From positions 248,001 through 312,000 of the forward strand of contig JAQSEB010000203.1 of assembly GCA_030063045.1 (NCBI GenBank): DNA of 64,000 nucleotides, written 5' to 3'. Below are positions 11,365 to 57,625 of this stretch, in pieces. The DNA is from Pratylenchus scribneri. Lineage: Eukaryota > Nematoda > Chromadorea > Rhabditida > Pratylenchidae. The notes beneath the pieces were generated by a model. That model was not told the origin of the DNA. It saw nothing but the letters and a program-made list of their open reading frames with translations, and did no database searches. A program made the position numbers and the translations under genes. Position 1 is the stretch's first letter; the number at the start of each line of letters is the position of its first letter.

Positions 11365-11718
11365 ATTAGCGTCTCGGCCATTAGCCTATCAGCGATTTTG
11401 AAGAGCCATAGCTCATCAGCCAATTAACAATTTAAATGATCTAAAGTGCTTTTAATAGCCCCAAGTATTGCCTATTCATTGGTATAATGATCATCCAAAA
11501 ATGTAATTTTTTGACCAAAATGCCAACGTTTTTGTATCTACAGCCATATTTTGGCCAAAACTTTACAGTTTTGGATGATCAATAAACCAATGAATAGACA
11601 ATAGAAATAGACAATAATTAGGGCTATAAAATGCACTTTAAAATATTTAAATTCGTTAATTGGTTGATGAATTACGGTTGGTCAAAATCGTTGAGATGCT
11701 AGTGGCAGATACGCTGAT
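11365..11718. repeat. Inverted-repeat (foldback) element
   Basis: The two halves are diverged inverted copies: the left half contains CCAATTAAC, AGTGCTTTTAATAGCCC and CCTATTCATTGG, and the right half has their complements in reverse order. No clear target duplication was found. The ends are placed to within about 10 bases. It lies just downstream of the PBC gene. Confidence 0.55.
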
Positions 11719-11742
11719 GTCCCTCTCCATTTTTAAAACTGT

Positions 11743-19106: not shown

Positions 19107-19532
19107 AGTGGTGACATAAATACTCAATTACAATTAATAATGTTGATGGTTATTTGCATTTTTCTTTTATTTGATTTTATGCAATAAATTTTCAATTAAT
19201 CTGATAAATTAAATTTATTGAAATGTAAATTTTTTATTCCATAATAAAATTCCAATTTTAAATTGTTATCATTTCACATCAATATAAGGTTAATAAATTT
19301 TCGACAAAATAAATAGAAATGCCTTTATTAGTGATTTTCAAAAATTGTTTTTTATGCTTATTATGGTTATTAAAAATGAAATTTTGAACAAAAATATTCT
19401 ATTAATTACCATCTTGGTATGATGCATCGAATTTTACCAAAATTATCAGGGAGCCACACTGCTCTCACCTATGAATAAATTAAAATAAATATTTTCTTTT
19501 TTTATTAAGAAATAATTTTTTTGAAATCCAAA

Positions 19533-19764
19533 TTATAGTTCATTCAACGCAGCTCTTCGAGCTGAATCTAACGGTGCTTTGTTGATTACACAATGGCATA
19601 AAATATGGGCGATTCCAACTGCCAAGGCAATGGCCGAGGCGGAACGAACTAAAATAGAATTGGAAAATGCACAAGCCGAGTTGAACCGGGAAAAGAATGG
19701 ATTTTGGACAAAGCTGGCTAATACAATTGGCGAAATCATTATTGGTGGTGTCTGGTGTGAATAA
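19533..19764 (+). other. Orphan exon-like fragment
   Basis: Between FLYWCH-like genes 1 and 2. An open frame after a TTATAG acceptor at about 19539 encodes about 74 residues, including an Ala/Glu-rich helix (KAMAEAERTKIELENAQAEL), and ends with a stop at 19764. A possible upstream exon lies near 19405-19470, but no phase-correct join was found. It may be the last exon of a small gene or a gene remnant. No family was recognised. Confidence 0.3.
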
Positions 19765-20164
19765 AATTGCTGAGAAAATTATCAACGGGATTTTCAAGAA
19801 GGACGAAAGTCATCAACGGAATTTTAAATAAAGCAAATAACATATTCTTTCTAATTTTTTCGAATACATTAAATCGCCCAAATTTGGTTAACCGATAAGA
19901 AAATTCGTTTATTTTGAGTTTTATGATACGATAAAAATTGGAAATTTTGGAATTTGGATAATTTAATTTTATAATTTTACAAAAATGGAAAATTCTTTAG
20001 TGCTTTTGCTGCTGGGAAATTGAGCATTTGAGTGAGCCATATGTTTTGAGTCAACCAATGGAACAATTTCTAGAGATTAAAGAAGATAAAACTTATTCGT
20101 TATTCCTTGCAAATTTCCTCCACCAACACCAATTGTCTCCTCCTCTTCTATTCTATTCAATTAA

Positions 20165-20184
20165 TTGGCTGGGCTTTTTATCGA
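20165..20184 (+). promoter_or_regulatory. Conserved upstream block of FLYWCH-like gene 2
   Basis: TTGGCTGGGCTTTTTATCGA, about 160 bases before the ATG at 20344, differs at one position from the block upstream of gene 1. Further upstream similarity (TCTCCTCC-type pyrimidine runs) is also shared. Confidence 0.45.
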
Positions 20185-20343
20185 TTATTTTATTTTATTC
20201 TTATTTAGAGATTTAAATTAAATTAATTCTTCAATTCTAATTTTTTAAGCTAATTTTTTCACATTTCAAATTTTAAGTGAAGAGTTTTTTATTTTTGAGA
20301 TTTACCATTATTTTCAATTAAAATAATTAATTTTTGCTGTAAA

Positions 20344-22116
20344 ATGAATTTGGATGCTGGCTGCAAAAATATGCTTATTATTGATAATAATGGTAACAAG
20401 TGAATTTTATTAATTAAAATATTGGCATTATTATTAGATGATGATGATGAAGAAGAAATAGAAATTGAAGAAGATGATTCTGAGGATGAGGATGAACCCG
20501 ACTTTATGGATAATTCGGGAAAATGCTGGGAATTTGCCAGCAAAATTGAGGATGAAAAACATTTGAAGGAATGGTGCCAAAACAAAATGGGTGAAATGAT
20601 TGTTGGAAAGGAGGAAAAATTGACTCGACAGTTCCATTGCCCGAACAAAGAATGCCAATTCAAGGCAATTTTTCTGAAGTCATGTTCAATTGTTTATACA
20701 AGGAATAAACACAACCATCGAATGGAAAATGATAAAAATATTGGAAAGAAGAAGGGAGAAGAAAAGGTAAGCCATTCATTTTAATTAGATTCAATGACTA
20801 TAATTTAAAAAAAAATATAACGATTTCTTAAATGATAAACAAAACCTAAAAAACTAATCAAAATTTAAAAAAAATTGAAAATCATTCTTACTACTTAAAT
20901 TAGAGAATCTTAGTAAGATTTTTCAATCTTATGTTGACTACATTTTTATATATATATATTTTTAATTTTATAAATTTGATTTAAATTTTCTATATATTTC
21001 TCTATTTTTAGACAAATCCTGCATCCCCGAGACTCGAACAAAGTTATGTTGATCAATATGGCAAATTATGGAATTTTCATGCCATAATTGGCAAAAATAT
21101 TTCACCGAACATATTTCGCACAAAGTTTGGCTTTACAGGAATTCATAGAAAAAATAAAAAAGAAATAAATTTATATTGTCAAAAGACTAATCCGGCTGGT
21201 GGAGTTTGTCCATTTGCTGGAATTTATTTGAAATCGAATGGGTGTTTATATACGAGAGGAAAACATGAACACACAAAAAGAGGGGTATTTTATTGGAGAA
21301 AATTATTAAATTACTAAAAAATTTATAGAAAAAACCTCAAAATATTGGCGATGATTATGTGGATATTTTTGGCAAAATCTGGAAATTTAATAAGGAAATT
21401 GGAAAAAACATTAAATGTGAAATATTTCATGACAAATTTGGCTTTTCTGGAATTCATAAAATAAAATCCGGATTTAATTTACATTGTCAAAAGTTGAAAT
21501 CGCCCAATGGACGATGTAAATTTTCCGGAATTTATTTGAACACAAATGGATGTTTGTACACGCGCGGAAAACATGAACATGCACTTCCAGAAAGGGTGAG
21601 TAAATGTCCAAAAAATTGAATTGTTATTTTGGGAAAATTATTCATAAAAATTTATTTGGTTTTGCTTAATTTTCATTTACTAAATACATTAAAATCCAAA
21701 TATGATATGCCTAAAATTGTTAGCTAATTTAGCTTAACATTTTATCGGGCATATTTATATTATTATTAAACAAATGGTAAATTATTGTTTAATTTAATAG
21801 AAAACGAACTAAAAAGAAATTTAGCAGTATAATAATAAATTAACTTTTTTTATTAAAGAATCCCAAACCGAATGTTGGCGATGACTATATCGATTGCGTT
21901 GGCAAGACCTGGCCTTTTCATTCAAAAATTGGCAAAAAACATATTCCAGATGAGATTTGGCGCAACAAATTTGGCTTTACAGCAATTTGTCGTAGACAAA
22001 AAATATTCAATTTGTATTGCAAAAAGATGACTAATGGAAAATTTTGCGCATTTGCTGGAATTTATGTTAAGGAGAATGGATGTTTGTATATTCGAGGAAA
22101 ACATGAACACAAATAA
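20344..22116 (+). CDS. Four-domain FLYWCH-like zinc-finger protein, paralogue 2
   Basis: Exons 20344-20392, 20438-20766, 21012-21284, 21329-21595 and 21859-22116 give 391 residues, the same length and exon plan as paralogue 1. An acidic Asp/Glu tract in exon 2 precedes domain 1. All four domains keep the two cysteines and the terminal H-x-H, and domains 2-4 keep GIYL/V and NGCLYTRG or NGCLYIRG. Domain 1 is nearly identical to that of paralogue 1, while domains 2-4 differ more, suggesting uneven selection or gene conversion at domain 1. The head-to-tail order and shared upstream block show tandem duplication. Confidence 0.75.
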
Positions 22117-22967
22117 AGCATTGTATCTTATTCTGGATTTAATAAATATATTCATTTTTTATTGTTTTTACTTTTTATGCATTCAATTTACAATAAAAAA
22201 TTAAATCTAATATAATTATATTTAATGATAAAATTTCAAATTTAAATTGTTAGTATTTCACAGCAATATATGGGTGACAATTTTCAACAAAATTAACTGA
22301 AGTAAAATTATAAATATTTATACCCTCTCTCATTCTCCTCTCGATAATTAGTAATTCCACTTTTTAATCTCCTACGATGGAAGGACCAAAATTGCTTATA
22401 TTAAGCATAAATTTGGGAAAGATTTGATGAGTTGGAAAACAATTTGGAAAATTTCCTCAGGCAAATATTTGGAAATTTTGCCATTGGGAATTAGAATGAA
22501 TAACCCTCGTTTAATTAGTAGTTTCCGAAACCTAAACCATGATCCACAATATATTTTTTATAGTGATTCGGTAAATTAGAATTTTATGTGCCCCTCCGCC
22601 CTCCTCCATTTTTGCCTCCTTTTGGAAGGGTTCCACTTCACCATTTGAGAAAATGTATCTGTCAGTCAAAATCAATTGAGGAGTGAAGGCCTCTCCGCAC
22701 TTTTTTCCTCATTTGGGAAATATGCGCAATTTGTATTGCTGCGCATATGCGCAACTTGTCGATTTTTTCCATTCTTTGCATTTTCCTCTATTCATTCGAC
22801 TTTTCTTTTTATTGATTTTTGCTTATTTAGATGAAATGAAAACACTATAAAATTTTATTTTTTTATTTTTGCAGATTCCAAAACTAATGTTTTCCATAAC
22901 TAGAAATTTACATTATTTCCAATAATTTCGAACATCTATTTTTTCAAACAATTTAATTTGAGGCAGA
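22117..22967. other. Intergenic/upstream region of paralogue 3
   Basis: No gene was recognised. It holds fragments related to the 396 bp repeat upstream of paralogue 1 (about 22400-22500) and a weak match to the shared upstream block (TTTTCTTTTTATTGA, about 22800-22815). Confidence 0.4.
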
Positions 22968-24938
22968 ATGGATTTGAATGTTGGCTGCAAAAATAATCGT
23001 AATGGTAAACTTGAATATTAATTTTAATTAAATTTAATTTTATTAGTAGATGATGAGGAAAAAGATGTACAAGTAGAAAATAATAGTGAAGAAGATGAAG
23101 AAGAGGATGAAGAAGAGGATGGTGAAGGGGATAATGAAGAAGATGAAGATGATGATGGAGAAGAGGATGGTGAAGAGGATAATGAAGAAGATGACGATGG
23201 AGAAGAGGATGGTGAAGAGGATAATGAAGAAGATGAAGATGATGATGAAGAAGAGGATGGTGAAGAGGATGATAATGATGAATATGAAGATGATGAAGAT
23301 GAACCCGATTTCATGGATAATTCGGGAAAATGCTGGGAATTTTCCAGCAAAATTGTGGATGAAAAACATTTGAAGGAATGGTGCCAAAACAAAATGGGTG
23401 GAATGATTGTTGGAAAGGAGGAAAAATTGACTCGACAATTCCATTGCCAAATCGAAGAATGCCAATTCAAGGCAATTTTTCTGAAATCATGTTCAATTGT
23501 TTATACAAGGAATAAACACAATCATGCTGTGAAAAATGCTAAAAATATCAAAGAAAAGCAAGAAAAAAATGTAAGTAATTTTCTATGTTTATTTTGCTCA
23601 ATGATTAATGTTTTTAAAAATCTGCAAAAAAATCCAAAATGATACAAATTAATTTCTAAATAAGTCATAAAAAGTAAAATTTAAAAAAATGAAAATCATT
23701 TTTCATATACGATTCTTTCATTTTGCCAATTGCCACATGTCTTCTTATCGATATAATATTGCTTTTCAAAATAAAATTAATAGTCATTTTGGGAGAAGGT
23801 GATTAGTCATTTTTTCTTATTATTTTAACAAGTTTTATATTTTTCTATTTATTTCTCTTCTTTAGACAAATCCGCGGGATTATGTTGATCAATATGGCAA
23901 ATTATGGCCTTTTTGTGCTGACATGGGAAAAAATATTTCACAGAACATATTTCACTCAAAATTTGGTTTTATACGCATTCTGAAAAGAAAACAAACTTTA
24001 AATTTACATTGCCAAAAGAAAAATCCCACTGGTGGAAGATGTCCATTTGCTGGAATTTATTTGAAATCAAATGGATTTTTGTATACGAGAGGAAAACATG
24101 AACACACAAAAAGAGGAGTATTTTATTGAAGAAAATAATTAATAATTAAATTGCTAAAAAAATTTATAGAAAAAACCTCAAAATATTGGTGATGATTATG
24201 TGGACAGATTTGGCAATAACTGGAAATTTAACAAAGAAATTGGGAAAAAAGTTAAACATGAAATATTTCTGAACGAATTAGGCTTTGGCAATATTATTAA
24301 AATGGAATCTGGATTTAATTTACATTGTGGAAAAAAAGCACCAAATGGACGATGTAAATTTTCCGGAATTTATTTGAATTCAAATGGATGTTTATATACA
24401 AGAAGAAAACATGAACATGCACTTTTAGGAAGGGTGAGTAAATGTCCAAAAAATTGAAATTTTTATTTTGGGCAAAATTATTCAAAATTTATTTCTGCTA
24501 AATTTCATTTACTAAACGGATTCATGAAACTCTCTTAAATTTTTATATTATTTTTTAACAATCATATAATAAATCAATGTTTGATTTAATGGAAAACGAA
24601 TTATAGTGGAATATAGCATTATATAATAATAAATAAATAATGATATTATTGTGTTTAATTAATTAATTAATTTACTTTAGAACCCTAAACCGAGTGTTGG
24701 CGATGATTATGTGGATTATGCTGGCAAATTATGGACTTTTCATTCAAAAATTGGCAAACAACCCATTCCAGATGAGATTTGGCGCAACAAATTTGGCTTT
24801 ACACAAATTTGCTTTAGAAAACAAACAATAAATTTGTATTGCAAAAAGATGACTAATAGAAAATTTTGCGCATTTACTGGAATTTATGTTAAGGAAAATG
24901 GATGTTTGTATATTCGAGGAAAACATGAACACAAATAG
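22968..24938 (+). CDS. Four-domain FLYWCH-like zinc-finger protein, paralogue 3, long acidic tract
   Basis: Exons 22968-23004, 23050-23570, 23866-24117, 24170-24433 and 24681-24938 give 443 residues. It has the same five-exon, four-domain plan as paralogues 1 and 2, but exon 2 carries an Asp/Glu tract of about 80 residues encoded by GAAGATGA-type repeats (23070-23305). In domain 2 the conserved NGCLYTRG is NGFLYTRG, and in domain 3 TRGKH is TRRKH; the putative zinc ligands are kept. The exon 2 acceptor is shifted by three bases (TTAGTAG). The acidic tract could serve in nuclear localisation or chromatin contact; that is inference. Confidence 0.75.
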
Positions 24939-25172: not shown

Positions 25173-28024
25173 CTATTGGCCATTTTCATTTTCTTTTGTG
25201 CTGCATTTTTTCCTTTTCAGATGTTCGTTCAAATATCTTTTCTGCTCAAATGTTTTTCCACAAATTCGGCATTGAAATGGAGTACTTCCTTTTTTGATGC
25301 ATGGTTTCTTTCTGCTCTGCTGATGGGCTTTTAAATTTTTTTCCATAGCGAAACCAATTCCACAATTTATGCAGAGATGTGGCTTTTCAGCTAAAATTTT
25401 GATAGGAACGAGAATTATATTTTATTTTGCTCAAAGAAGAACAAATAATAATTGGGTAATTGTAAAGAATCTGCACAGAATAATGTATGATTTTTTGATA
25501 TACCATTCGATTCCTCTTACTGTGAGTTGAGTTCGAATCTGCAAAAATTTTTTTTGATAGAGGCGCCTTGGAAAAAGTTACAATATGATGAAATTTGGAA
25601 AATTGTAGGGTCCTCTATGGGTCGAATTTAAAAAAAAAAATCAAATTTTTCTTGGACAAATTATAGTTCAGGCGACGCAACTTGATGAACAGAAGAGCAC
25701 GAATCTGCCATCTTTTTCACAAAAAACCGAAAATTAAAAAAAATAATGGCCATTTTTAATTCCACTAATTGGGGTTGGGATTAGGGGTTTATGGTAATGG
25801 TTAAGGGTTGTGGTTAAGATTAGGGCCAAGATAGAAATCTTAAGGAAGCCTAAAATATCGTCCGGGTGTAATTTCGCCAGAAAAATAGTTTTCACCCAAA
25901 GGGGAACCCTTTACTTTTACAATATTTGCTCTTTCATCATACGGTAACTTTTTTTCTAGGTGGCCCCATTTAGAAATATTTTGCAGATTCGTACTTAGTT
26001 AGCTCGGCGAGAAGAATCGCATGTTATATCATGCATTTTTCTTGTTCTGTGCAAATTCCTTACGATTGCCAATAATTGTTGCTCACATCGATGTATTCGC
26101 TCATGGAGCTCTAGCTTCTTTGGAAAGGGAAATTTTTTCCCGCATCCTTGTCTTTTGCATTCATATTTATATGATATATTTTTATCCGCTGAAACATTCA
26201 TTTAACAAAATAATTAATTTATTTTAACAAAAAAAAACAATGATTTTTTAAATTCTAACTTACATTGATGTGTTTGTTCATGTCGATCACAATTCCATTT
26301 ACGGCCAAATGTTTGATCGCATCCGGGCCATTTGCATTTAAATATTTTTGCATCGGCTGAAAATTGGAAAAATTATCACAACTAGTTCAGGCGAACGTGA
26401 TGCTAGGATTTTAGCATAGTATTATGGCTTATAGGCTCTAATTAGGGCCCATTACAAGGAATATATGAATCTAAAGAAGTCAAAAATATCCCTAGATTTT
26501 AATTTCAAGCACAAATTTGTGATCAGCACCGAAATTAGCCAAGGAGGCATTTTTCATAATTTTTGATGGGGGTATGGCAAAAGCAAAAAGTACCAAATAA
26601 AATATAATTTTCGAGGCTTAATATAGAGCAAATTTAAAATTGAATCTCATTTAGTAAATCAGGGCCCGTAGCAAAAGCCAGAGTTATTTTACGTGGTAGG
26701 GTTATTCTACCCGATAAGATTATCTAGTAGTAATTTTACCCAAATCCGTAGCAAATAAGAAAACAGCGATTTACCCTCGAGATCGGGTAAGTTTACTATC
26801 CAAAAAATGGAAAAAAATGACATTTTTTAGTTTTTTTTAATTCTATAAAATTAAATTTTGCTGTCTAAATAAAATAAATTTTATATGAAAAATAGAGCTG
26901 AGTTTCCTCTATCGAATAAGTGTTGATTCAGATTTTTTAAAAAATTTTAAACCGGTTTTATAAGGCGATAAAAGTCGAGAGTAACTATTTTTAACCTGCT
27001 CCCTAGCAGGGTAAGAATTTTACCCACGACCCCAGGTAAGCTTACCCTCGAACTCGCTTATTTGCTACGGGGTAGAATTTGGGAGTAGGGTTACCAACTA
27101 AGGCTACCCTCGAGGTCGGGGTAGCTCATTTGCTACGAGATTTGAGTAAGGTTACCGGGTTGGTTAACTCTTACCTCGTTATTTACTACGGGCCCAGGAT
27201 AATTTTTAAGTTTTCTGGACTGTTTAAAATTTCATTTATATTACAAATTTATTTTCCGCTAGAATGAATACATATTTTCATGCTTACTTTTATGTGTTAA
27301 TTTGTGGGCAATCAAATGTTCATTCCGTTTGAAATCCATTCCACAATTTTCGCACAAAAATGGTCTTTCCGCTAAATTTGAAATAATAAATTTGTTAAAA
27401 TTTTTAAATTTACTTAAATGTGATTTCTCAAGATTGCGTAATTTCGATCGGTTAGCAAATTTTTTCCCACAGTCGGGATTTTTACATTCAATTGACAATT
27501 CATTGGCTGAAAAATGAAAAAAAATTTAAAAATATATTTTTGATTTTCTTTATTATCAAACTGGATGAAATTATTAATTTATTTATTTTTTCCTAAATGC
27601 AAAATTCATGTAAATTTTTAAAGTTTTTTCCTCACGTTTATGTGTTAATTCATGAATTCGACAATTCCCTTTAGTTGCAAATTTTTTTCCGCAACCAAAT
27701 TTGCATTCATGCGGTTTCTCGCCGGCTGAATATTCAAATTTTAATTTGTGATTTTTTCATTTTTTTTTATTTCTCAAAATTTAAATTAAATATATTTTTT
27801 ATAGTTTTTAAATTTGCCAACTATGTGTCCGAAGATGAACATCCAATATCGATTTAAATTCACATCTTTTTCCACAAAACTGAAAATAAAAATAGATATT
27901 AATTATTCTACCAAATAATATGCACTTCACAATTAAATGCCTCTTCATTTTGAGGTTCATTTCTGATAACATTTGTTGGATTATTTCTCATCGGAATATT
28001 TTTCCCGTTTATTCTTCCATTCAT
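25173..28024 (-). CDS. C2H2 zinc-finger protein lacking signal exon (paralogue of secreted ZF genes)
   Basis: Eight exons (28024-27926, 27879-27822, 27725-27636, 27506-27414, 27371-27288, 26356-26264, 26188-26087, 25390-25173) join in phase to 278 residues with eight zinc-finger-like units. Most are separated by linkers such as TGEKP, TERPF and SEKPH. The last two end in Cys instead of the second His (C2HC-like, for example CRICGKTFEQKRYLNEH...KKC). The start aligns with exon 3 of the secreted gene at 28450-30334, but the acceptor that opens that exon (CAG) is CCG here, and the sequence upstream is a MITE followed by the other gene's end. The signal-peptide and disordered exons are therefore absent. 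It probably acts in the nucleus, or is a truncated duplicate. Introns 5 and 7 hold inverted-repeat elements. Confidence 0.75.
25534..25991. repeat. Foldback element in intron, telomere-like core
   Basis: Terminal inverted repeats CGAATCTGCAAAA, with a longer, weaker match inwards (AAAAAGTTAC / GTAACTTTTT). The centre (about 25775-25835) holds degenerate TTAGGG-type repeats. It lies in intron 7 of the zinc-finger gene. Confidence 0.6.
26662..27195. repeat. MITE-like inverted-repeat element in intron
   Basis: Ends GGGCCCGTAGCAAA and TTTACTACGGGCCC are inverted repeats; inside, TACCC/GGGTA motifs recur (GGTAGGGTTATTCTACCC, GGTAAGCTTACC). No coding frame and no clear target duplication. It lies in intron 5 of the zinc-finger gene. 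Confidence 0.6.
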
Positions 28025-28027
28025 AAT

Positions 28028-28490
28028 TAGGGTTAATTATACGTGTGGGCGTAACGTTTACGCGTAACGGTTATACGCAACGATTTTGGGCTAATAAACG
28101 TTACGTTATACGCACCTTGACTTTAGGCATTATACCTTTATACACACTCTGACTATACTAAACTCCTATTTTTAACCTGATTTTTGCTATTTTTTGAATC
28201 TGTATGCCGAATTTTTTATTCTATGGAGCGCCACTCTGCCTAATATGGTCATTTAAAAGTAAATAAAGACAATTAAAAGGATTTTAGTGCAGAAAAAGAG
28301 TAAATTATTTAATTTTGGCAATTTTTTAAATATAAGTTAATAAATTTCTAAAAAAATCTACAACATCTTATAGAGAGTGAATAACGTTAAATATAAGCAT
28401 ATAATTTTCCTGGATCGCCTATAAGCACCTTGACTATACGCATTATACGTTATAGCGTTTTCATTATACGCTTGCTTATAATTAACCCTA
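28028..28490. mobile_element. TAGGGTTAATTA-ended MITE, 463 bp
   Basis: Ends TAGGGTTAATTATA and TATAATTAACCCTA are inverted repeats, and CGTTACG/ACGTAACG iterations lie inside both ends. Length and ends match the element at 39786-40249. No 8-base duplication was found here. Its right end lies inside the last exon of the secreted zinc-finger gene and supplies that gene's final 13 codons and stop. Confidence 0.75.
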
Positions 28491-30334
28491 TTTTCAACTT
28501 ATTTTTTTTTCTGTTGCATTTTGTCCTTCTTAGATGATCTCTTAAATATTCCTCCTTTTCAAAATATTTTCCACAATTTGTGCATTGAAACGGTGTGCTT
28601 CCTTTTTTCCGGCATGGTATCTTTCTCTTCGTCAGGTGATCTCTCAATTCATATTTCCGTTTGAAACCAATTCCACAATTTTGGCAGACATTCTGCTGTT
28701 TATTAAAATTTTTACTTAAATGTGATTTCTCATGATTGCGTAATTTCGATGGGTTCGCAAATTTTTTCCCACAATCGGGATATTTACATTCAAGTGGCAT
28801 CTCATTGGCTAAAAAGTAGAAAAAGAAAATACATTAAATTAGATTTTCTTTATTATCAAAATGAATGAAATTATTAATTTATTATTTCCTAAAAATATAT
28901 GCAAATTTTTAAAGTTCTTCTCACGTCGATGTGTTAATTCATGAACTCGACAATTTTCTTTAGTGGCAAATCTTTTCCCGCATCCTTCCCAATTGCATTC
29001 AAATGGCTTCTCGCCAGCTGAACAAAAGTAATTATATTTATTTATATAAAATTTATTTTTTAATTTCTCATAATATAAATTATTTTTATATTATTTTAAA
29101 ATTCGCTTACTATGCGTCCGAAGATGTGTTTTCAATACATATGGAAATTTAAATGTTTTATCACAAAACTGAAAATAAAAAATAAATTAATTTTTCATCA
29201 TCCAATACGCACATTACAATTTAACACATTATGATGAGGCTTATTTCTGCTAACATTTTTAGGGTTATTTTCCATCTGAATATTTTTTCCCGATTATTTT
29301 TCCATTCAAATTATACTATTAATTTATTTTACCATGTTGTGTTCAATACGTTGAAGATTTTGATCATCACCTATTGGATTTGAATCGTTCAAAATTGTGG
29401 TTGGATGAATATGAATATTTCCAAATATTGTTGGACTATGTTCCGTTGACCGCCGATTATTCATTGCAATATTATTATTGGATGAATTTTGTCGGGCATA
29501 CATTGAATGTTGTACATTTTCAACATTGGACTGCACATTTTCAATTGGCAAAAGCATTCCTTCTGGAAGCCAATTGGCAAATGGATTTGATATTAAATCA
29601 TCATTGGATTCATTTGCATTTGATGAATTTTCCAAACCATAAAACGGATTCTGTGGATTGAATTGTAAATTCTCAATGTTTACATTTAAAGTAAGTTTTC
29701 AGTAGAGATTTTAGAAGATATTTCACAATTATGCCCAAAATTCGTGATCAAAAATTAAATTTTGTTAATATTCCTCACATCAGTAATAAAGGGAATGTTC
29801 CATGAAAACTGAAATCCGTAGGATTCCACAGAAATGTTTGGGCCCAATTCGAAAGTTAAATTTTTCCCAAAGAGTAGAAAAAAATGTACTTTTCCAATAC
29901 TCCTATCTCCGCCATATCATCCTTCCTAAACTACTCCACAATTTTTTTCGAAGTCGATTAAAATTATAAAATCTATATACCGCATTCAAATTTGTTTGAT
30001 CTTCTTGGTCTTGGCTGAATTGGTGGCCAATTTCCACCGGAGCATTCTGCTGATTCCTGCTGATGTCTTCATCAAGTGATGCCACGAATTGTCTAAATTC
30101 TTCCGAATTCAAAAAAACATCAAAATCATTTTCATTTTCTACAACTGCCTCTGCTGGTCCATCACTGGTTTCTCCTCCTTCTTGTTTTTCATTTGGTTGT
30201 GGATGAAAAACTTTCTCCACTAGTGGAATATTTCCTTCTTCAAACATTTTACTTTTACCTTTATCATTTGTACAAATACAAAATGTAGAAATATTTAATA
30301 ATAAAATAGTCAATAATAATGTTGGAATTTTCAT
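28450..30334 (-). CDS. Putatively secreted C2H2 zinc-finger protein 1 (signal peptide + five fingers)
   Basis: Six exons (30334-29981, 29650-29333, 29275-29213, 29168-29111, 29017-28925, 28808-28450) join in phase to 414 residues. Residues 1-21 form a signal peptide (MKIPTLLLTILLLNISTFCIC), followed by a Lys-rich then acidic, Asn/Gln-rich, probably disordered region to about 240. Five zinc fingers follow: CNFC...H-x3-H, CNWEGC, CKYPDC, and two C2HC-like units ending in Cys; the first two are linked by TGEKP. A stretch before finger 4 (SKNFNKQQ) looks like a former intron now read as exon. The last 13 residues come from the MITE at 28028-28490. Two separate genes is the alternative, but every junction keeps phase and the paralogue at 34438-36619 has the same plan. 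Secreted zinc fingers could act in a host nucleus; that is inference. Confidence 0.75.
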
Positions 30335-30489
30335 TTTCTTGAAAGAAAAATTTATATTAATTAGAGAATTTAATTTTTAGCAGATTTACCCAATTAATTT
30401 TAATAAGGAATTTTTTTAAAAGGACAGAGTTTATTCTAAAAAAAAGTACTGAAAAGTCAATTCATTTTTAAAAATTCGACATGGATATA

Positions 30490-30740
30490 AGCGTTGCCCT
30501 TTTGCCAAATCACTCATAAAATTTATGGGTCTATTGTCAAATCAATTATAAAATGTCAAAGGATGGCCAAATCACTCATAAATGCAAAAGGATGGCGCCC
30601 ATAAATGCAAAATAAATGCAAAATAATGGCCAAATCACTCGTAAATGTTAAATGATGATCACACGTAAATTCAAATTGATGATCAACCGTAAATGCAAAA
30701 GGATGGCCAAATCACACGTAAATGCAGGAGAAGTGGCGAA
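30490..30740. repeat. Upstream minisatellite of secreted ZF gene 1
   Basis: Imperfect units of about 27 bases around GGATGGCCAAATCACTCATA and AAATGCAAA lie about 155 to 405 bases before the start at 30334. A related array lies at the same place upstream of the paralogue at 36619. Confidence 0.6.
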
Positions 30741-31205
30741 AGGAGCGAGAAAGTCATAATTCTATTTTCCCATATCCACATCCCACCCAAACACTTCACT
30801 CCCACCGAAATTGACAAATGTAGGATATTTTTCTAAGAAAGGAGGGGAAAAGTAGGAGGTTATCAGTCATAAAAATGTGACGAATCTCATCAAAAAAACC
30901 ATCATTTTTCATTTCTCTTCGGTATTCCCATTTCCCAATTCCTCTAATTCTCTAAAAAATGAGAGATTATTTTTCCCATTGCTAATAAGCCTAAATTTAG
31001 CATGCCTAACATTCATGCAATGAATCTAATCTGACCAGAATTAGCATTTTTCTAACATATACGATCATTCCAATTTCCGAATCGAATGAGTTTTATAAAT
31101 TGATGAGCTAGGATGGCGAAGAAATGAAATATGGCCATCCATCACAAAATATTTATTAATGTCTGTCGCTTTACTATTTTTGGTCAGTGTAAATCGAAAT
31201 CGGCT

Positions 31206-32415
31206 GAAAAATGGCGGTGGGGGACGTTTCATCCCCGCCGGTTCATCGCCAGCTAAATTTGACGAGTCATAACTCAGCAAAGAAGAAACCGTTTGAGGCA
31301 ATCTTGGTATCATTGGATAGAGCTAATCAAACTCTATTGAATAGTGGTTAAAGTTTTTTGATAAATGAAAATTTTAGTGACTTGAAGTCGAAAAAGTGAA
31401 TAAAAGTCGCCGGTAATATTCCGTCATAGGTCCCAGACTCAAAATCAAGCAAATGATGTACCAATCGATAGAACTCGATGAGCTGAGTCCGAAAATACAA
31501 GAAATTTCAGCGCGCTTGCACTTTTGGCCAAGTTATGGCCGTTAAAAGCCATTTTCCCATAAAAGTGCTTGGTCCCCCCTATGGGGCGAAAATTTTTAAA
31601 TTTTTTTTCATGACTATATTATAGCTCATTCGACGCGGCTCGAAGAGCAGATACCGAATCTGTGATTGGTTTCGCGTAAAACTCAAAGCGAAAAAAGTTC
31701 AGGCCATTTTTGTCTCGCTGGAATGTGTTGGAACTGCGGAGGTAATGTAAGAAGGGACTCCGGAGTGGCGTAGCCGTAGCGACGACCCGGACCGCGGAGC
31801 GGTCCGGCGGCGAGCTTAGCGAGCGCTAGCGAGCTAAGTGAGCCGTGAGGAGCGAAGGCGGAGCACACGTAGGAGTCCCTTCTGAAATGCCCACCGGAGC
31901 AGTTCCAATCCGCCTTTGCGCGACTGTAACTTTCTTAGTTTTGAGTTTTGTGCAAAATCAATAGTATATTCGTGTTCCGCTCGTCGAGACGCGTCGATTG
32001 AGCTATTATATGTCCAAATCAAGATTTTGAACTTTTTCGACCCATAGGGGGGACCCTTCACTTTTTCGATTTTCGTGTGGCCATAACTTGACCCAAAACC
32101 AGAGCGCGCTGAAATTATTTATATATTCGGACTCAGCTCTACGAGCTCTATCGATTGGTATATCATTAGCATGATTTCGCGTCTGGGACCTATGACGGAA
32201 TTTTTCCAAAGTCGCCATTTCGCTATTTAGAAGCTTGTAATTAAGCGAATATTGAACTTTTCACATATTACTCTATACCATTTAATAAAGCTTAAATAGC
32301 TCTATTCAATGATACTAAGATTGGCTCAAACTGTTTCTTCTTTGCTGAATTATGACTCGTCAAAAGTGGCTGGCGATGAAACGGCGGGGATGAACCGGCC
32401 CCCTCCGGAAAAATG
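31206..32415. mobile_element. MULE-like foldback element, 1210 bp
   Basis: Long terminal inverted repeats of about 400 bases (left includes TTCATCCCCGCCGGTTCATC, right its diverged complement) are flanked by a 10-base direct repeat GAAATCGGCT (31196-31205 and 32416-32425). Long inverted repeats with 9-11 base duplications are typical of Mutator-like elements. The centre (31750-31870) is GC-rich with AGCGAG/CTCGCT palindromes. No transposase frame is present, so it is non-autonomous. Confidence 0.7.
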
Positions 32416-32499
32416 GAAATCGGCTATATCATATACTGTATATCATATTCATTTTGGAATTCGATGCATAATATCATAATTTGGTATGCTAAAATATAT

Positions 32500-33565
32500 T
32501 CAATCACACAAAATGTGTTTTCCTCTATTTTTGGCCTTCTCCGCCAGTGCTTCTTCGTATATGTTCTGGGCCCGTTCGCAAGCATTTATATGTGCATTCT
32601 TCATATAATTCTGTGAATGTTAAAATATTTATTTAAAAAAGTATTTGTTCTCGTTCTCTGTCAATTATTCTAGTATTTTAATTGAAATAGATGTTAAATT
32701 GGTAGTACCTTTTTTGTTGTTATTTTATTTTGCTAAATTCCTTCTATTTTTTTATAGGGGATTTGCTGCAATTCATTCAATTCCCCTAACAATATTATGC
32801 AAAAATCAAAACCAAAATGACAAGATAAGATTGAAAAGAATGTCAGAATCATCCACATAGCACTCAATTTAGCAAAATAAAGTTTTGAAAAAATTTAAAA
32901 AAAATAAAAATTTTTCGCACCACTATTCTGATTAGACCTTTGCATGTTAATTTAATATTCATTTTCAGCTTGTCGAGCTCTTTCGAATAAGCTATTCCCA
33001 TTAGAGTTGGCCCCTGCCCCGAGACAGGGATTCGAAACCCCGGTGATCCACGGCCGGTAATTTTTCCCCTGTAACACCCCTAAGATGTTCCCCGGAAATT
33101 TTGATCTAATAAGAAAAATTATTTCTGAGATGTTCCCCTGAAATTCCCGGAAAATTATCTCTGAAATATTCCCTGGAAATTTTTTACCTAAGCCATTCTG
33201 CCCCCGGATATCCAATCCTAATCCCCCCCCCCCCATTTACCTGATTGGCACATCTTTTGGTTTTTTTATTGGGACCAGAAAAATGAACCTTATTACCAGG
33301 CAATTTTTTTACTAGTTTCATTCAAAATGAAATTTTAATGATTTAATTCAAAAAAATGGATGACCTTTTGTTCATTCGTGGGATGAGCGACAACTTTACC
33401 AGTATCTTTATCGTAAACAATAAGAGTTTTAGATTCGTTGCAATGTGGACAATGGAATGTTATAGTGGCGGCCTCATTTGGCTGGGGAATGAATGTTGCG
33501 GCCAACAACAGAATATACAGAATTGTTAATGTTATAAAAATTGTGACAGAGGAGGAAAATTGCAT
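32500..33565 (-). CDS. Small secreted protein with CPHC motif (119 aa)
   Basis: Three exons (33565-33365, 33288-33241, 32610-32500) join in phase to 119 residues. A strong signal peptide or anchor (hydrophobic residues 7-27) is followed by a short mature region with CPHC, a basic NKKTKRC segment and a C-terminal Glu/Ala helix ending CD. The 630 bp second intron holds GC-rich iterations (33000-33200) and a C run; another exon could hide there, and reading on past exon 2 would instead end in a Gly-rich tail. No family was recognised. The C-x2-C plus later cysteines could bind a metal or form disulphides. Confidence 0.5.
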
Positions 33566-34437
33566 ATTTTTTATTTATTCTTTTTGATGATCTATTAAAA
33601 TATTTCATTTTGATGATAATTTACTTTCGATAAAAAATCAATATGCATTTTATATTTGACCATAATAAAAATGACATATAATTCGGCCATGAAAATTATT
33701 AAGTTTTGGTTTAGTATTAAGTTAGGCTAAAGCTCTTAGGATTATGACAGGAAGACCAATGGAAAGCGATTAGGCCAAATTTTTAATGGCCTCAAAAATG
33801 TCAATTTTTTAACTTGGTAATTTTATCCTTTTTCAGTAAAAAATTCACTTCATTTTTCAATAATTTTTATTGTATTTTTATGATTGCATTGAATTCGATA
33901 TTGAGACAGGATTTGCTTAACAATTTTTGTTAAATTTTAGTTGTTTAAATCTATGGAAAAATTTCAAAAATCTTTGAAATTTTTGGAATTATAATAAATT
34001 GATTTAAATTAAAAATGAAATTGATTTTGATTATGGGCCAATCTTAACGGTTTTTAAAATCAATTTTTAGGTTTTTTTAATCATTCGTGTATATTTTCTG
34101 ATCATACGTACATTTTATTTCCATTCAATTTTGTCCCATTTTATTGCTGGCTTTTCGCTCCTTTATTTTTGTTATCCATTCTCCAACCCTGCCACTCCTG
34201 ATGATCAACCATGAATTTTTAAAAATTCAAATTTATTTCTAATTACTATTTGATATTTAAGTAAATTAATGCAGTTTTGCCTAACTTTCAGGTAAAAATT
34301 GTAAATTTCCAGTTTTGCCAGATTTCCACTTTTGCCGCCAACATAATATAAATTTAATATTTTCATAGAAATTTCATTAATCATTTATTAAAAATAAGTT
34401 AATCAGACAAATTTTTTGTTAGATTTCTCTCATTAGT
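33566..34437. other. Intergenic, nothing recognised
   Basis: AT-rich spacer between two minus-strand genes. No open frame, repeat family or RNA gene was identified. Confidence 0.45.
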
Positions 34438-36619
34438 TTATTGGTTCTTTGTCACTTTCCGCTTATTTTCTTTTTTGATGCATGTTGTCCTTCGCATATG
34501 CTCCCTCAAACCTTTATTTTTCTCGAAAGTTTTTCCACAAATTTTGCAAACAAAAGAAGTACTTCCTTTTTTGATGCATGGCCTAATTTTTTTTAAATGT
34601 TCTGCCAAATCATCTTTTCGCTTGAAACCTGCTCCACAATTTGTGCAGACATGTGGTTTTTCTGCTAAAATTTTTTTGTGAAAATGTGATTTTAAAAACC
34701 AATGATGTCAAAAAATAAAAATAATTATTCAAATTTTTACCCACTATTATGTAATAACTTATGACGATCCAAACGAAATTTATAGTTAAATTTTTGTTCA
34801 CATGCATCGCATTTAAATTTCTTTTCAGCTGCTAAAAATGGGAAAAGGATCAAAAATTTGTTGTTAATTTCTTTTAAAAAATATTATGGCCATTTTCAAT
34901 TACATAAACATAAAATATCACCAACTTTTATGTATTTCTGATAGATTAACATTTAGGACAAAATTTTAAGTTTACTATTTTATTTGCTTTAAAAATTTGT
35001 ACAAAAATATTATTTACATTTCTCCCCAAGATTCTTGAATTTTATTAATTGGTAATATCATTTTGAAAAGATATGCGAATTGAGAAGCCAAAAATGGAGT
35101 TATAAAAAAGATAGAGCCTTAAATGAATGGAAAAAAAATGATTTGAAAAACAAACAATTTTGAAAGGGTCTGAATTATTAGGAAATGCTGGGAATGTATT
35201 ACAAATGTTCGGAATGAGTAAATGTAGGGAATGATTAGAAAATACAAATGAGAAGAATACTCGGAAAAACATAGTAAATGGGAAAGAGGAATGAGTTAGA
35301 AAACAAAATGTGAATAGCGAGGAATAATTTGAAAAATCCCTGAATAACTAGGAATAGCCGAGAAAATATGAGCTAGCGAGGAAGTGTAAATAGCGGCGAT
35401 CGATCGCTTGCTATTTTATTAATCATTAAAAAGCATTCCTGCTCTATAAAAAAATAAGATTAAATTATTTGACATTATGCTTGCACACATAAATGGAGGA
35501 CCTACAGATTCAATTCGAATATATGGATAATTTTTTATGTATTCTGGCTAATTATTTCTGTTACCTTCCTCTACATTTGCTGGCTCTTTCATTGGCTGAT
35601 TTTGGTCCTTCATTTGTTGTGGCGGTGGGGAAATCCATGAATATAGAACATTTTCATTATCGGTGGTTGTGTTTTGCCCTTCCTTTATGATTCTCCAAGC
35701 ATTTTGATTGTTTTCCGATTCGCCGTTTAAGATAGGTATTTTGTTATCCGCTTTCCATCTTTTGTCCCTCATCCATGTTAAATCATCTGTATCATGAAAT
35801 GATCGTTTTGCGCCAATAATAGGTGCTAATTTTTAAATAAAAACGGGCAATAATATTATTTTTATAAACCTTTTCCCTTATTCAATAGTGATTCTTGTCC
35901 AACATTTGTGGCTAGCTCTCGGCTTGGTATATTTTCGGAAATCAATGACAATGGACTCTGTAGATTAGGCTGAAAATTCTGATGAAAGGAATGAAAAAAT
36001 ATTTTTAATTTGTCGAAAATTTGCCTTCAGCAAACAATTTTTTTAATATTCTTACGGAGTTAAATGTGTTCCATGGAAGCTGAAACCTACTGGATAAAGG
36101 AAATTTTTTATACCATCTCGAAATTATTGATTTGAAATTTCTCCCTTATTATCCATACTTTTTTTTTATAAAAATACAGGTGAAAAATATTTCGCTAAAT
36201 ATTCATTATTCTAGAGTCCATCCTTCTTGAACTGCTGAACAATTTCTGATTCAAATTAAAATTATTTAAAATTTATATACCGAATTCAAGTTGGAAAATT
36301 GAGTGGATTGTTGGCCAAATTCCACCGGAGCATTCTGCTGATTCCTGCTGATGTCTTCATCAAGTGATGCCACGAATTGTCTAAATTCTTCCGAATTCAA
36401 AAAAACATCAAAATCATTTTCATTTTCGACAATTGCCTCTGCTGGTCCATCACTGGTTTCTCCTCCTTCTTGTTTTTCATTTGGTGGTGAATGAAAAACA
36501 TTGTCCGCATGTGGAATATTTCCTTCTTCAACCATTTTACTTTTACCTTTATCATTTGTACAAATACAAATTGTAGAAATATTTAATAATAAAATAGCAA
36601 ATAATGTTGGAATTTTCAT
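34438..36619 (-). CDS. Putatively secreted C2H2 zinc-finger protein 2 (signal peptide + three fingers)
   Basis: Five exons (36619-36281, 35969-35870, 35825-35565, 34831-34745, 34664-34438) join in phase (0, 1, 1, 1) to 337 residues. Residues 1-20 form a signal peptide almost identical to that of secreted ZF protein 1, and the whole first exon is a close copy. A low-complexity middle of about 120 residues follows, unlike that of protein 1. Then come finger 1 (CDACEQKFNYKFRLDRH), an HNTEKPHVC linker, finger 2 (CTNCGAGF...) and finger 3 (CKICGKTFEKNKGLREH...TTC); the last two are C2HC-like. The end is Lys-rich. The 733-base third intron has no recognised exon. As for protein 1, secretion is read from the signal peptide and any host target is inference. 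Confidence 0.8.
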
Positions 36620-37559: not shown

Positions 37560-38028
37560 AGCCAAAAAATGAGAGGTTATTTTTCCTATTGCTAATAAGC
37601 CTAAATTTAGCATGCTAAAATTAACTAGTATTAAAAAATAAATCGAAATTGCTAAATAAATATTTGTCAGCCCTCAGCCACGATTAGAAAAATTAATTAA
37701 AAACGATATTTACTAATGGGCAGGTAGCCGAAATTCTCCATATTTAACTATATTTTCAATTTATTTTTTTTTCGAAATCTTTTCTAATTCTAATAAGATT
37801 AAAGAAAGGGAATACCTATAATCCAAGGGATTGAAAAAGGACCATTCAAAAAATTATAATTAAATTTATATGGTTATCCACACGCCATTTCCTTTTTTTT
37901 AGAAAAACATTCTTATTTATTAAATGGAAATTTCCAATAAAAAGTTTAATTTTTTCGCAATTTGAATTAAATTTGTATAGTTTGACAAAATTAACATATT
38001 TAAGATTGCAATTGCAAAATTTCGAATT

Positions 38029-38535
38029 ATGTTGAACAATATGGTATTTTTCATAACCATTATGATAATTTTTTTGATGTGCTTGGATCCAACAAACGGT
38101 GGTAATTGCTTTGGCAGTGGTGGCCATCGTAACGGCGGCTACAGGGTCCGTGGTCGCCATGAAAATAGAGCAAGGTATGGTCAAACCTATAAAAATAGAC
38201 AACGTCATGCTGGTCGTTGGTTAATAAATAACCCAACTTCGAGCGAAATTGGGTTCATTGAACCGCCAAAGGAGCATAGAGTTGTGGTAATTGACGACGA
38301 TGATGGCAAAAATCATGAAAACATTCTCAATCAGCAGAAACAAGATCCTATGAATGATGGGAAAATACCATCTCCAAATGATATGCAAAAGGCAAAGAAT
38401 GGATATGAGAAAAAATCTAGACGACCATTAAGAATGAAAATGATAAAACAATCTAGAAAGACAACCAAGAATGGAAATGGAAAAACTGTAAATTCAACAA
38501 ATGTTGATGACAAGAAAAGATTATTAGATGTTTAG
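38029..38535 (+). CDS. Small secreted basic Gly/Arg-rich protein (168 aa)
   Basis: A single exon of 168 residues. Residues 1-24 form a signal peptide (hydrophobic core VFFITIMIIFLMCL), followed by a Gly/Arg/His-rich segment (GGHRNGGYRVRGRHENRARY) and a Lys/Arg-rich C-terminal third (KKSRRPLRMKMIKQSRK) that looks like a nuclear localisation or nucleic-acid-binding region. There are almost no cysteines in the mature part. No family was recognised. A secreted protein with nuclear-type basic runs fits an effector, but nothing in the sequence proves it. The antisense frame is a shadow. Confidence 0.6.
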   Translation: MLNNMVFFITIMIIFLMCLDPTNGGNCFGSGGHRNGGYRVRGRHENRARYGQTYKNRQRHAGRWLINNPTSSEIGFIEPPKEHRVVVIDDDDGKNHENILNQQKQDPMNDGKIPSPNDMQKAKNGYEKKSRRPLRMKMIKQSRKTTKNGNGKTVNSTNVDDKKRLLDV

Positions 38536-43376: not shown

Positions 43377-45643
43377 CTACCCTCCCCAAAACTGACCATT
43401 GCCCAATGTGATATAGACATGTCGACCATGCCTGCGAATTTTCAACATTTGTTTTTCATCATTTCCATAATAATATTGGCGCAATGGTCGTTCAACCAGA
43501 CCCAAAAGAATTGGTTCATCTTTCCAATGACTGAAGGATTTTTTAAATTCCTCTTGAATTTTCACCAAAATTTCTTTAAATTTTGACTGAAAATGTTTTC
43601 TTTGCTGATCTTTATGAATTTGATCTTCCAAGCGTTGCTGTCTCCTCAATATCCATTTCATTTGTTGCTCCAATTTTTGTTTTAACTCATTTTGCCTCTC
43701 ATCATACTCATTCTTTTGTTTTTCTACAAAATAAATAATTAATTTCCCTTATAAATTTTAGATTTTTTTGCATTTTTAAATTTTATTTTATTGCCTTTTG
43801 TTTTTGGTTTCTTCAATTAAAGAATTTCGTTATTCTAGTATTTTTAAGTCCAAAATTTTAGAAAAATTTTCAAGGCGATTTGAATTATGGTTGAAAATGC
43901 AAATACCGGAGAATATGTATGTTACAACAATTCTTGGAAATTGACGATTTCCGGAAATCGGCGTTGACGAATTTTGGAAATCTCGGCTTCTAGGCATCGC
44001 ACAGACCCTTTAGTCTATGAAATTTCAATTTCAGACCTTTCCCTTAAGCCCCTAGCCCTTAATCCCTAGCCCAAGCCCCTAAAACTCATGCCGCCCTTAA
44101 CCCTAACACTAACCCTAGCCCTATTTCGGTCTGTAATTGAAATTTCATATAGTAAATCGACTATGCCGAATCGATGAGCCTACTTTCGGGTCTGTAAGAT
44201 GACAAGAAGCCGAGATTTCTAAAATTCGTCAACGCCGATTTCCGGAAATCGTCAATTTACAAGATTCGACGTAACATCTATATAGTAAGGGTGTGAAGAT
44301 TATGTCGAGAATCATAAATGAACTAAAAAATGAATGAAGAAGAAAATGTCAAAAATTGTATTGTAAAATATAAATGGATTTCTTACCATTAATCATTTTC
44401 TTCTCATTTCTTTGTGTAAATTTATTTTGAAGAAGGAATCGTCTAAGTATTGCGAATTTTGTAATTAATTGTTGCAGCTCTGTGTGCATAATGAACTCGG
44501 CTTTCCACGGTATTATACTCCATCTTGCCAAGTTGATCGAATATGTCATATTTAACAATATTTTATATATTGTCTCTTCATAATCATTTTCTGATTCTTC
44601 CGTTCCTCTTTCCCTTTGCTCTATTTTCGTGCACAATATTGTGAATTCAGTGAAAACATTTTTTAACATCTCGCCAATGTTTTGTTGCATTAATTTTTTT
44701 ACATCATTTTCATGCATTTTCGCACCAATCTCCTTAAAATTTTCCGATTCCTGAAATTTTATCCATTCATTATTTAATTTATAAATTTTTTCCTTTTCCG
44801 CCAATATATTTATAATTTTCCCAATTTTTTTGATATCATTTTGTGCATTCAATTCCACAATTAATTGATGTGCATCGGAAATTGTTTTCGCCATTTCCTC
44901 GGATACTTTAAAGTGCAAATTTTCTTCTCTTTGTTTGCCCAAATCCTTTCCCAATATTTTATTGAATTCAGCAAATTCCTAAAAAATTTAGTAAATTAGA
45001 CAATAACTTGCCATTCATCTATATTTATACATTGGCCAATTCCAATTCGAAATTGTTTTCGGCTAGAAATTTTTTCATAAATTCATCCATTTTTGAAAGT
45101 TGCCCATTTTCGTCGCGTAATTTTCCAACCAATTTAAATATGTGGGCAATATTAATATTGTGTGATAGGTTAATAAAATCCATGAAAAGATTCATCATAT
45201 TTTGACAATTTGCAAAATTTTTTACATTTTCGATTTCTAAAATTTAATTATTATTATTATCTTCTTATTAATAGCGAAAAAGGCTCTAAATATATTATTA
45301 TTATTTTTTGGCCATACTCACCAAAAAATAATCTCAACAATTTTTCTTCAATTTGTTTAAGATTGTTTGATTCTTCACTAATTTTATTCTCTACCACAAG
45401 AACATTTGCAGTATTTTCCATTTTCAACAATTCCGATTCCCAACAGAAGCTCCAGACAATTGCAGCGCCTACTTTTCGGCATTTTTCAAGTTGCCTTTCT
45501 TCAGCATTGGTTCCTCCATTTTTTTCCATAATTTTTAAAGCAATTTCATTTAAATTGATTTCCATAGCTGAGACCAGCTCCATAATTTCAATTTCAATTC
45601 CAATACTAATTACAAGAAAGAGTAGTAACATGCATTTACGCAT
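43377..45643 (-). CDS. Secreted coiled-coil protein (488 aa)
   Basis: Four exons (45643-45322, 45236-45031, 44978-44387, 43723-43377) join in phase to 488 residues. A signal peptide (CMLLLFLVISIGIEIEI core, residues 4-20, cut probably near residue 26) is followed by long Glu/Lys/Leu-rich helices through most of the chain, and a short C-terminal region with aromatic and basic residues ending GNGQFWGG. Cysteines are few. The heptad-like content suggests coiled coils or a helical bundle. No family was recognised. The third intron (663 bp) contains the foldback element at 43921-44274. Secretion is well supported; function is unknown. Confidence 0.7.
43921..44274. repeat. Foldback element with telomere-like core, in intron
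   Basis: Inverted halves start GTTAC and share AATTGACGATTTCCGGAAAT on both arms. The centre (about 44040-44135) is a run of degenerate CCCTAA-type repeats. No target duplication is clear. Confidence 0.65.
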
Positions 45644-47428: not shown

Positions 47429-47787
47429 TGTCAAATTTTGACTTGACTGACTGTGACTTTTTCCCAAGACGAACGAAATAAACGAATATTTACTTTAATT
47501 TTATTCCAATTTCCAAATTATGTGAATAAATTCAATTTGTTCGGAACGAATGAATAAAGCAATGGGTCTTTTTTGAATGAGTGGAAAAAAGTGAGCCCAA
47601 TCGCCGTTATTTGCCTCTTTTTGAATAGAAGGAAAAATTGCCCAAAGGCGTAGGCAAAAAACGGTGATTCGGCTGACAATTCATGGATAGAAAATGGCAA
47701 AAGGGAGGCACAAAATTTTGACATTAATAAATAAAATTGGTTAACAAAAATGGAAACAAAATTCAAAGATCGGGATAAATCCCGACA
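47429..47787 (-). repeat. BEL 3' LTR
   Basis: 359 bases, no difference seen from the other LTR. It carries the last codons and stop of the polyprotein (TGA at 47763-47765). Directly before it on the minus strand only a short purine run (CGGGAG) could serve as polypurine tract. Confidence 0.95.
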
Positions 47788-57623: not shown

Positions 57624-57625
57624 CT

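What the first reader, a model, noticed from the sequence alone, without database searches (positions are those of the whole stretch)
28450..36619. Two paralogous zinc-finger genes whose first exon is a signal peptide
Seen in the sequence: both genes start with an almost identical signal-peptide exon and continue through phase-compatible exons into C2H2 fingers (five and three). Known: C2H2 fingers usually work in the nucleus and are not normally secreted. Inference: the proteins are exported and act elsewhere, for example as effectors entering a host nucleus, or the fingers bind something extracellular. This is the strongest candidate here for an undescribed system.
Basis: partly seen in the sequence, partly recalled or inferred. 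Interest (0 to 1): 0.85.

Follow-up and report, generated by a model that had tools for sequence, protein, structure and literature searches.

The report
Secreted zinc-finger protein family
Two neighbouring genes of a root-lesion nematode encode zinc-finger proteins that begin with an export signal, and they belong to a large family in this worm that is probably sent out of its cells, perhaps into the plant it feeds on.

Summary
Genes A (30334-28450) and B (36619-34438) start with a signal-peptide exon and run through phase-compatible GT-AG exons into five and three C2H2/C2HC fingers. Assembly size and contig number match Pratylenchus scribneri, a plant-parasitic nematode. Thirty-four loci carry this exon. 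Relatives without it carry a second, unrelated signal peptide: in 11 of 11 places read (of 20) it shares one open frame with the gene's middle exon, so no splice is needed. Genome-wide, 83 such starts are found. Of 30 relatives of the terminal finger exon, 24 have a signal-peptide start within 3.5 kb upstream on the same strand; random placement gives 0.7, but 10 of 30 also have one downstream. Fingers are constrained (pN/pS 0.34), the first exon is not (1.11). Export is likely. Delivery into host nuclei is unproven: no expression data, and a gland promoter motif is not above genomic background. Secreted C2H2 effectors are known (MiISE5, MoHTR1/2), so this is an expanded, modular variant of a known kind.

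The parts
29981..30334 (-). Gene A exon 1: signal peptide plus acidic N-terminal region, 118 codons, phase-0 donor AATGCG|GTATATAG at 29980
29333..29650 (-). Gene A exon 2: middle exon, 106 codons, no Pfam match; homologous exons lie in other family members
29213..29275 (-). Gene A exon 3: starts with ATG right after an acceptor (possible alternative start without signal peptide); ends just after the first cysteine of finger 1
   Evidence: read by eye
29111..29168 (-). Gene A exon 4: rest of finger 1
   Evidence: read by eye
28925..29017 (-). Gene A exon 5: TGEKP linker and finger 2
28450..28808 (-). Gene A exon 6: fingers 3-5 (last two C2HC), stop
36281..36619 (-). Gene B exon 1: signal peptide plus acidic N-terminal region, 113 codons, phase-0 donor
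35870..35978 (-). Gene B exon 2 (NFQPN...NKG), phase 0 to 1; an in-frame alternative acceptor TTTTCAG lies 9 nt in; relatives of this exon at 25 of 32 family loci, 4 of them with a stop
35565..35825 (-). Gene B exon 3 (APIIGAKRSF...), phase 1 to 1
34745..34831 (-). Gene B exon 4: finger 1
   Evidence: read by eye
34438..34664 (-). Gene B exon 5: TEKP-like linker, fingers 2 and 3 (both C2HC), basic tail, stop
25173..28029 (-). Partial third copy: repeats gene A from just before its exon 3 (76% over 651 nt) and a terminal finger exon (73% over 214 nt), with no exon 1 or exon 2 seen
30335..30959 (-). Upstream stretch of gene A that aligns with that of gene B (one 1085-nt block at 74% covering about 0.6 kb upstream, exon 1 and the start of intron 1)

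Best explanation
Genes A and B belong to a large, fast-turning family of exported C2H2/C2HC zinc-finger proteins in Pratylenchus scribneri. The first exon supplies a cleavable signal peptide and an acidic N-terminal region that evolves without detectable constraint. Middle exons supply a linker with basic, NLS-like stretches (by eye). The last exons supply fingers kept by purifying selection. Most likely the protein is secreted (well supported by sequence, not shown by experiment) and delivered from the worm into root cells during migration and feeding (inferred from lifestyle and from MiISE5). There the fingers bind host nucleic acid or host proteins and dampen defence (inferred). I rate nuclear and cytoplasmic action about equal: TGEKP-type linkers and basic tails favour the nucleus; the C2HC pairs and MiISE5's behaviour favour protein binding in the cytoplasm. 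The confidence is for exported and host-directed, whichever compartment.
For: 34 exon-1 copies genome-wide. In the 17 of 26 open copies with a recognisable donor, exon 1 ends in phase 0 although its length takes 11 values from 276 to 366 nt (two of the donors read by eye). Relatives of gene B's exon 2 lie after exon 1 in 25 of 32 copies, with the nematode acceptor TTTTCAG in 16 of 25. Same-strand fingers lie within 3.5 kb in 18 of 32 copies. A second, unrelated signal peptide shares one frame with the middle exon in 11 of 11 places fetched of 20 candidates; 8 of the 11 have a terminal-finger hit within about 1.8 kb behind. 24 of 30 terminal finger exons have a signal-peptide start within 3.5 kb upstream on the same strand (random mean 0.71, maximum 4 of 28 placed). 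pN/pS: fingers 0.34, mature exon 1 1.11, signal peptide 0.95; Fisher p 0.0008 for mature exon 1 against fingers (8 pairs, fingers comparable in 4). No hydrophobic stretch after the signal peptide in the 26 copies examined (highest 19-residue mean 0.99). MiISE5 has the same plan (signal peptide, predicted NLS at 36-46, C-terminal C2H2 pair, 435 aa), is gland-expressed and suppresses defence.
Against: No transcript, gland or localisation data. The P. penetrans gland-associated motif CAANTGKC is at genomic background upstream (7 of 31 copies against 20.3% of random stretches), though above mononucleotide shuffles (mean 2.36). Fourteen of 32 exon-1 copies show no finger by my pattern, 6 of 32 have an early stop or lost start, and 9 of 26 open copies lack a recognisable donor at the usual place. 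Four of 25 exon-2 relatives contain a stop. Antisense fingers occur at 7 of 32 copies. In clusters, 10 of 30 finger exons also have a signal-peptide start downstream and 5 of 30 one on the opposite strand; one of the 24 linked exons is part of the partial third copy behind gene A. pN/pS near 1 in exon 1 is also what an unconstrained exon would show. My frame-preserving-indel test was not significant (11 of 36 exon gaps against 16 of 73 intron gaps, p 0.35). Gene A exon 3 begins with an ATG after an acceptor, so a form without signal peptide is possible.
Confidence: 0.6

Rival explanations
1. Exported, but acting in the plant cytoplasm by protein binding, like MiISE5, not as a transcription regulator (overlaps with the best explanation, which leaves the compartment open).
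For: MiISE5 was cytoplasmic and inactive in a yeast activation test; the last fingers of A and B are C2HC.
Against: A canonical TGEKP linker in gene A and basic tails fit nucleic-acid binding; purifying selection on fingers does not tell the two apart.
Confidence: 0.3
2. Exported by the worm but acting outside host cells or inside the worm (body fluid, egg, gland lumen), with zinc fingers as structural folds.
For: A signal peptide alone does not show delivery to a host; CAANTGKC is not above genomic background.
Against: Large expansion with an unconstrained N-terminus is unusual for a housekeeping secreted protein.
Confidence: 0.22
3. Two kinds of transcript: the fingers are made as ordinary worm transcription factors from internal starts, and the signal-peptide exon belongs to separate short transcripts.
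For: Gene A exon 3 starts with ATG behind a TTCAG acceptor; the partial third copy has no exon 1.
Against: Exon 1 of A and B runs into a stop soon after a conserved donor, which fits an exon that is spliced; the second sub-family has signal peptide and middle exon in one frame; gene B has no such ATG at an exon start.
Confidence: 0.1
4. The array is mostly decaying duplicates without function.
For: 6 of 32 exon-1 copies carry an early stop or lost start; several finger hits contain stops.
Against: Fingers under purifying selection (pN/pS 0.34); 26 of 32 first exons open over 80 codons in a sequence of about 30% G+C.
Confidence: 0.06

Closest known systems
MiISE5 of Meloidogyne incognita and the 29 secreted zf_C2H2 homologues of M. 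incognita, M. floridensis, Globodera pallida and G. rostochiensis (PMC5940819; passages and the Discussion read)
   Same: N-terminal signal peptide, predicted NLS soon after it, long linker, C2H2 fingers near the C-terminus; similar length (435 aa against about 414 and 340 from exon lengths here); plant-parasitic nematode.
   Different: Here 34 starts of one type and 83 of another in one migratory species, two unrelated signal-peptide modules, five and three fingers ending in C2HC pairs. Sequence homology to MiISE5 was not tested.
MoHTR1 and MoHTR2 of Magnaporthe oryzae (PMC7672089; abstract and passages read)
   Same: Secreted proteins with a C2H2 finger; a precedent for export followed by binding to host promoters.
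   Different: Fungal, with a C2H2 domain flanked by basic residues; nuclear localisation and promoter binding were shown by experiment; no family relation claimed.
GPLIN_000713500, novel effector candidate of Globodera pallida with zf-C2H2 domains (PMC4213498; table passage read)
   Same: Listed among candidate effectors with C2H2 fingers.
   Different: 161 aa; no sequence comparison made here.

Membership tests
C2H2 zinc-finger protein (Pfam PF00096) | Match over the curated cut-off | tested here: met
   57.0 and 47.0 bits for the last exons of A and B (cut-off 25.2); the stretch around gene A exon 5 has 18.9 bits, below it
Secreted protein (classical) | N-terminal signal peptide, no later transmembrane stretch | tested here: met
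   hydropathy only, in the 26 copies examined there; no SignalP or TMHMM available
Secreted zf_C2H2 / MiISE5-like set | Signal peptide plus at least one zf_C2H2, no transmembrane domain | tested here: met
   exon by exon; linkage of the exons in one transcript not shown
Secreted zf_C2H2 / MiISE5-like set | Sequence homology to MiISE5 | not tested
   MiISE5 sequence not fetched; protein searches returned only 2 and 9 short, unnamed or hypothetical proteins
Plant-parasitic nematode effector | Expression in pharyngeal gland cells | not testable with these tools
   No transcript or in situ data
Plant-parasitic nematode effector | P. penetrans gland-associated promoter motif CAANTGKC (PMC7585316, passage; there in 12 genes, 40% of the new candidates, so not universal) | tested here: not met
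   7 of 31 upstream regions against 20.3% of random stretches; shuffles 2.36 of 31
Plant-parasitic nematode effector | Presence or effect inside host cells | not testable with these tools
   Needs experiment

The most novel reading that the evidence does not exclude
Pratylenchus keeps a modular export system. A few interchangeable signal-peptide cassettes (SP1 exon, SP2 frame) are swapped onto different bodies: C2H2/C2HC finger arrays, a FLYWCH-like Cys/His domain, and a coiled domain. The finger members act as a large, diversifying set of host-nucleus regulators, a nematode counterpart to MoHTR effectors drawn from more than 100 signal-peptide starts.
Probability: 0.25. Interest if true: 0.85.

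Novelty: new variant of a known kind. Interest (0 to 1): 0.6.

Why it matters
If exported into roots, this family would be a large candidate effector set of a root-lesion nematode. It would make testable whether animals, like a rice-blast fungus, send zinc-finger regulators into plant cells. The two unrelated signal peptides on one kind of body also offer a natural experiment on how secreted families are built by swapping exons.

Tried and rejected
Gland motif CAANTGKC upstream of exon 1: not above genomic background, though above mononucleotide shuffles. Frame-preserving indels as proof of coding: not significant, and the aligner splits gaps in distant pairs. Diversity at finger contact residues: helix positions -1, 2, 3 and 6 vary (entropy 2.9-3.3 bits over 47 fingers found by pattern) but position 5 varies as much (3.2), so no conclusion. 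Linkage of terminal fingers to exon 1 alone: only 8 of 30, which first spoke against the reading; 16 of the other 22 have the second signal-peptide type. Of the 6 still unlinked, four contain stop codons, one is the partial copy in the window, and one (C178:214336) has upstream a second-type hit matching only from query residue 13. Relatives elsewhere: two profile searches gave 2 and 9 short proteins, hypothetical or unnamed; two of them, P0001 and P0002, equal copies of this genome by eye. Only proteins of limited length could be found that way. Structure of the FLYWCH-like domain: low confidence (mean pLDDT 54.7), so no fold search was made. One paper on P. penetrans effectors was not held. 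Nine paper searches were made; in their listings I saw no paper on a secreted C2H2 family in Pratylenchus. Listings only were seen, except for the papers named with passages.
Full report
What was checked. The finding names two - strand genes, each with a signal-peptide first exon and C2H2 fingers. The sequence and frames show both. Gene A has six exons from 30334 to 28450 and gene B five from 36619 to 34438. All introns have GT-AG ends and matching phases; gene A's are 0, 0, 0, 1, 1 and gene B's 0, 1, 1, 1, read by eye. Pfam finds zf-C2H2 in both last exons; the first exons match no Pfam family at E up to 1.

Whose genome. The window lies in contig C203 of an assembly of 227,248,964 bases in 276 contigs. 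The Pratylenchus scribneri draft assembly has 276 contigs and 227.24 Mb (PMC10138993, passages including part of the abstract). I take this as the source; it is an inference from the numbers, not a named record.

The first exon is a family. A search of the genome with exon 1 of gene A gives 36 rows at E up to 10. Dropping one chance row (E 8.5) and one that is the second half of another copy leaves 34 copies on 12 contigs. Two more members used as queries return parts of the same set and no new place (32 and 35 rows). Thirty-two copies could be read (two in the window, 30 in L039-L058). Of these, 26 are open through the first 80 codons and 6 have an early stop or lost start. In 17 of the 26 a donor is recognisable at the usual place and ends the exon in phase 0, at 11 different lengths; in 9 it is not. 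The 26 copies examined (no stop in the first 60 codons, starting MK) keep a hydrophobic stretch near the start and no later one.

The exon leads to a body. Relatives of gene B's exon 2 start 428-1077 nt after the ATG in 25 of 32 copies, with TTTTCAG at the start in 16 of 25 and a stop inside in 4 of 25. Gene A itself has no such exon. Middle exons like those of A or B follow in many copies. Fingers by pattern lie on the same strand within 3.5 kb in 18 of 32, against 7 of 32 on the other strand (opposite-strand neighbours or chance pattern matches); 31.5 kb of other window sequence gave none. Copies without fingers include broken ones, ones cut by the end of the fetched stretch, and a sub-group (L043, L047, L050) whose bodies look glutamine-rich or coiled by eye.

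The decisive point. Relatives of the terminal finger exon are often not near exon 1: only 8 of 30. I therefore read the sequence just upstream of the middle exon at such places. One search lists 30 middle-exon hits, 10 next to exon 1 and 20 not; 11 of the 20 were fetched. All 11 show a different signal peptide, typically MKNFFCILLICSKIIEIICAGEN, in one open frame with the middle exon (alignment); TTTTCAG stands just upstream of the ATG in 6 of 11. Eight of the 11 have a terminal-finger hit within about 1.8 kb behind; for three (C56:192855, C43:211952, C16:370391) searches list none. A genome search with one of them gives 104 rows; among the 96 with E up to 1e-4, 83 include the start. With both types counted, 24 of 30 terminal finger exons have a signal-peptide start within 3.5 kb upstream on the same strand; one of the 24 belongs to the partial third copy behind gene A. 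Controls: 10 of 30 downstream on the same strand, 5 of 30 upstream on the opposite strand, and a mean of 0.71 (maximum 4 in 2000 trials) with random placement of 28 hits on their contigs, which does not reproduce the clustering. Two unrelated signal peptides on one kind of body are hard to explain unless export is selected. This is the main reason for my confidence in export.

Selection. Over eight pairs that use each gene once, pN/pS is 0.95 for the signal peptide, 1.11 for the rest of exon 1 and 0.34 for fingers; fingers could be compared in four pairs. The contrast is significant (p 0.0008), though counts within a pair are not fully independent and the method is simple. Between A and B, exon 1 has dS 0.041 but the one comparable finger 0.78. 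The promoter-plus-exon-1 block is thus younger, or has been homogenised, compared with the fingers. One search agrees: one 1085-nt block at 74% covers upstream sequence and exon 1, and a separate 241-nt block at 71% lies in the terminal exon.

Modularity. Exon 1 or the second signal-peptide frame also leads to other bodies. At eight places a FLYWCH-like domain (by eye; no Pfam match to it) lies 0.4-2.6 kb downstream of a signal-peptide start: C109:1243412, C208:207221, C208:183329 (weak start, E 6e-4), C16:526152, C16:114902, C8:2511225, C21:2047807 and C87:1028087 (one stop). At four places a coiled domain like that of window 45257-45700 follows the second signal-peptide hit within about 25 nt, three of them in one open frame (C21:1405357, C16:121282, C21:1702000; at the fourth, C21:1554715, the match contains stops). 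One environmental protein, P0008, shows the same fusion (E 2e-16).

What it probably does. Shown by computation: conserved gene anatomy, signal-peptide-like starts, constrained fingers. Inferred: secretion, delivery into the plant, and action on host nucleic acid or protein. MiISE5 is the nearest published case (PMC5940819, passages and Discussion): expressed in subventral glands, suppressing host defence, cytoplasmic. MoHTR1/2 (PMC7672089, abstract and passages) show that secreted C2H2 proteins can act on host promoters. I found no tool evidence that decides between the two modes.

Limits. No transcripts, no SignalP, no named nematode proteomes. Whole-genome counts depend on single-sequence queries and are lower bounds. 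The assembly has many duplicated genes (41.4% duplicated BUSCOs), so copy numbers may include homologous chromosome copies.

Noticed in passing
window 17219-24938, + strand: Tandem genes with an acidic stretch and a repeated domain of about 85 aa ending C...C...GIYLKSNGCLYTRGKHEH, FLYWCH-like by eye, no Pfam match to it; 150 hits scored of 437 candidates in the genome; model of low confidence.
   Followed up: partly
L055 (C109:1240300-1248300): Exon-1 family copy followed by a gene-B-type exon 3 and then this FLYWCH-like domain instead of fingers; its exon-2 relative has a stop.
   Followed up: partly
window 45257-45700, - strand: Open frame with a hydrophobic start and a coiled-looking domain that also occurs behind the second signal-peptide type.
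   Followed up: partly
window 33335-33574, - strand: Small open frame with a hydrophobic start and a CPHC motif, lying between genes A and B.
   Followed up: no
window 37981-38535, + strand: Open frame with a hydrophobic start and a basic, arginine-rich body; no Pfam family over its cut-off.
   Followed up: no
window 47518-58038, - strand: Long frame of 3083 aa, retroelement-like by eye, with one nearly identical short frame on each side (47518-47913 and 57715-58038); described only.
   Followed up: no
window 10001-12000 and 30001-32000: Two stretches of higher G+C (0.358 and 0.381) than their neighbours (0.28-0.33); the retroelement region is also higher (0.34-0.41).
   Followed up: no
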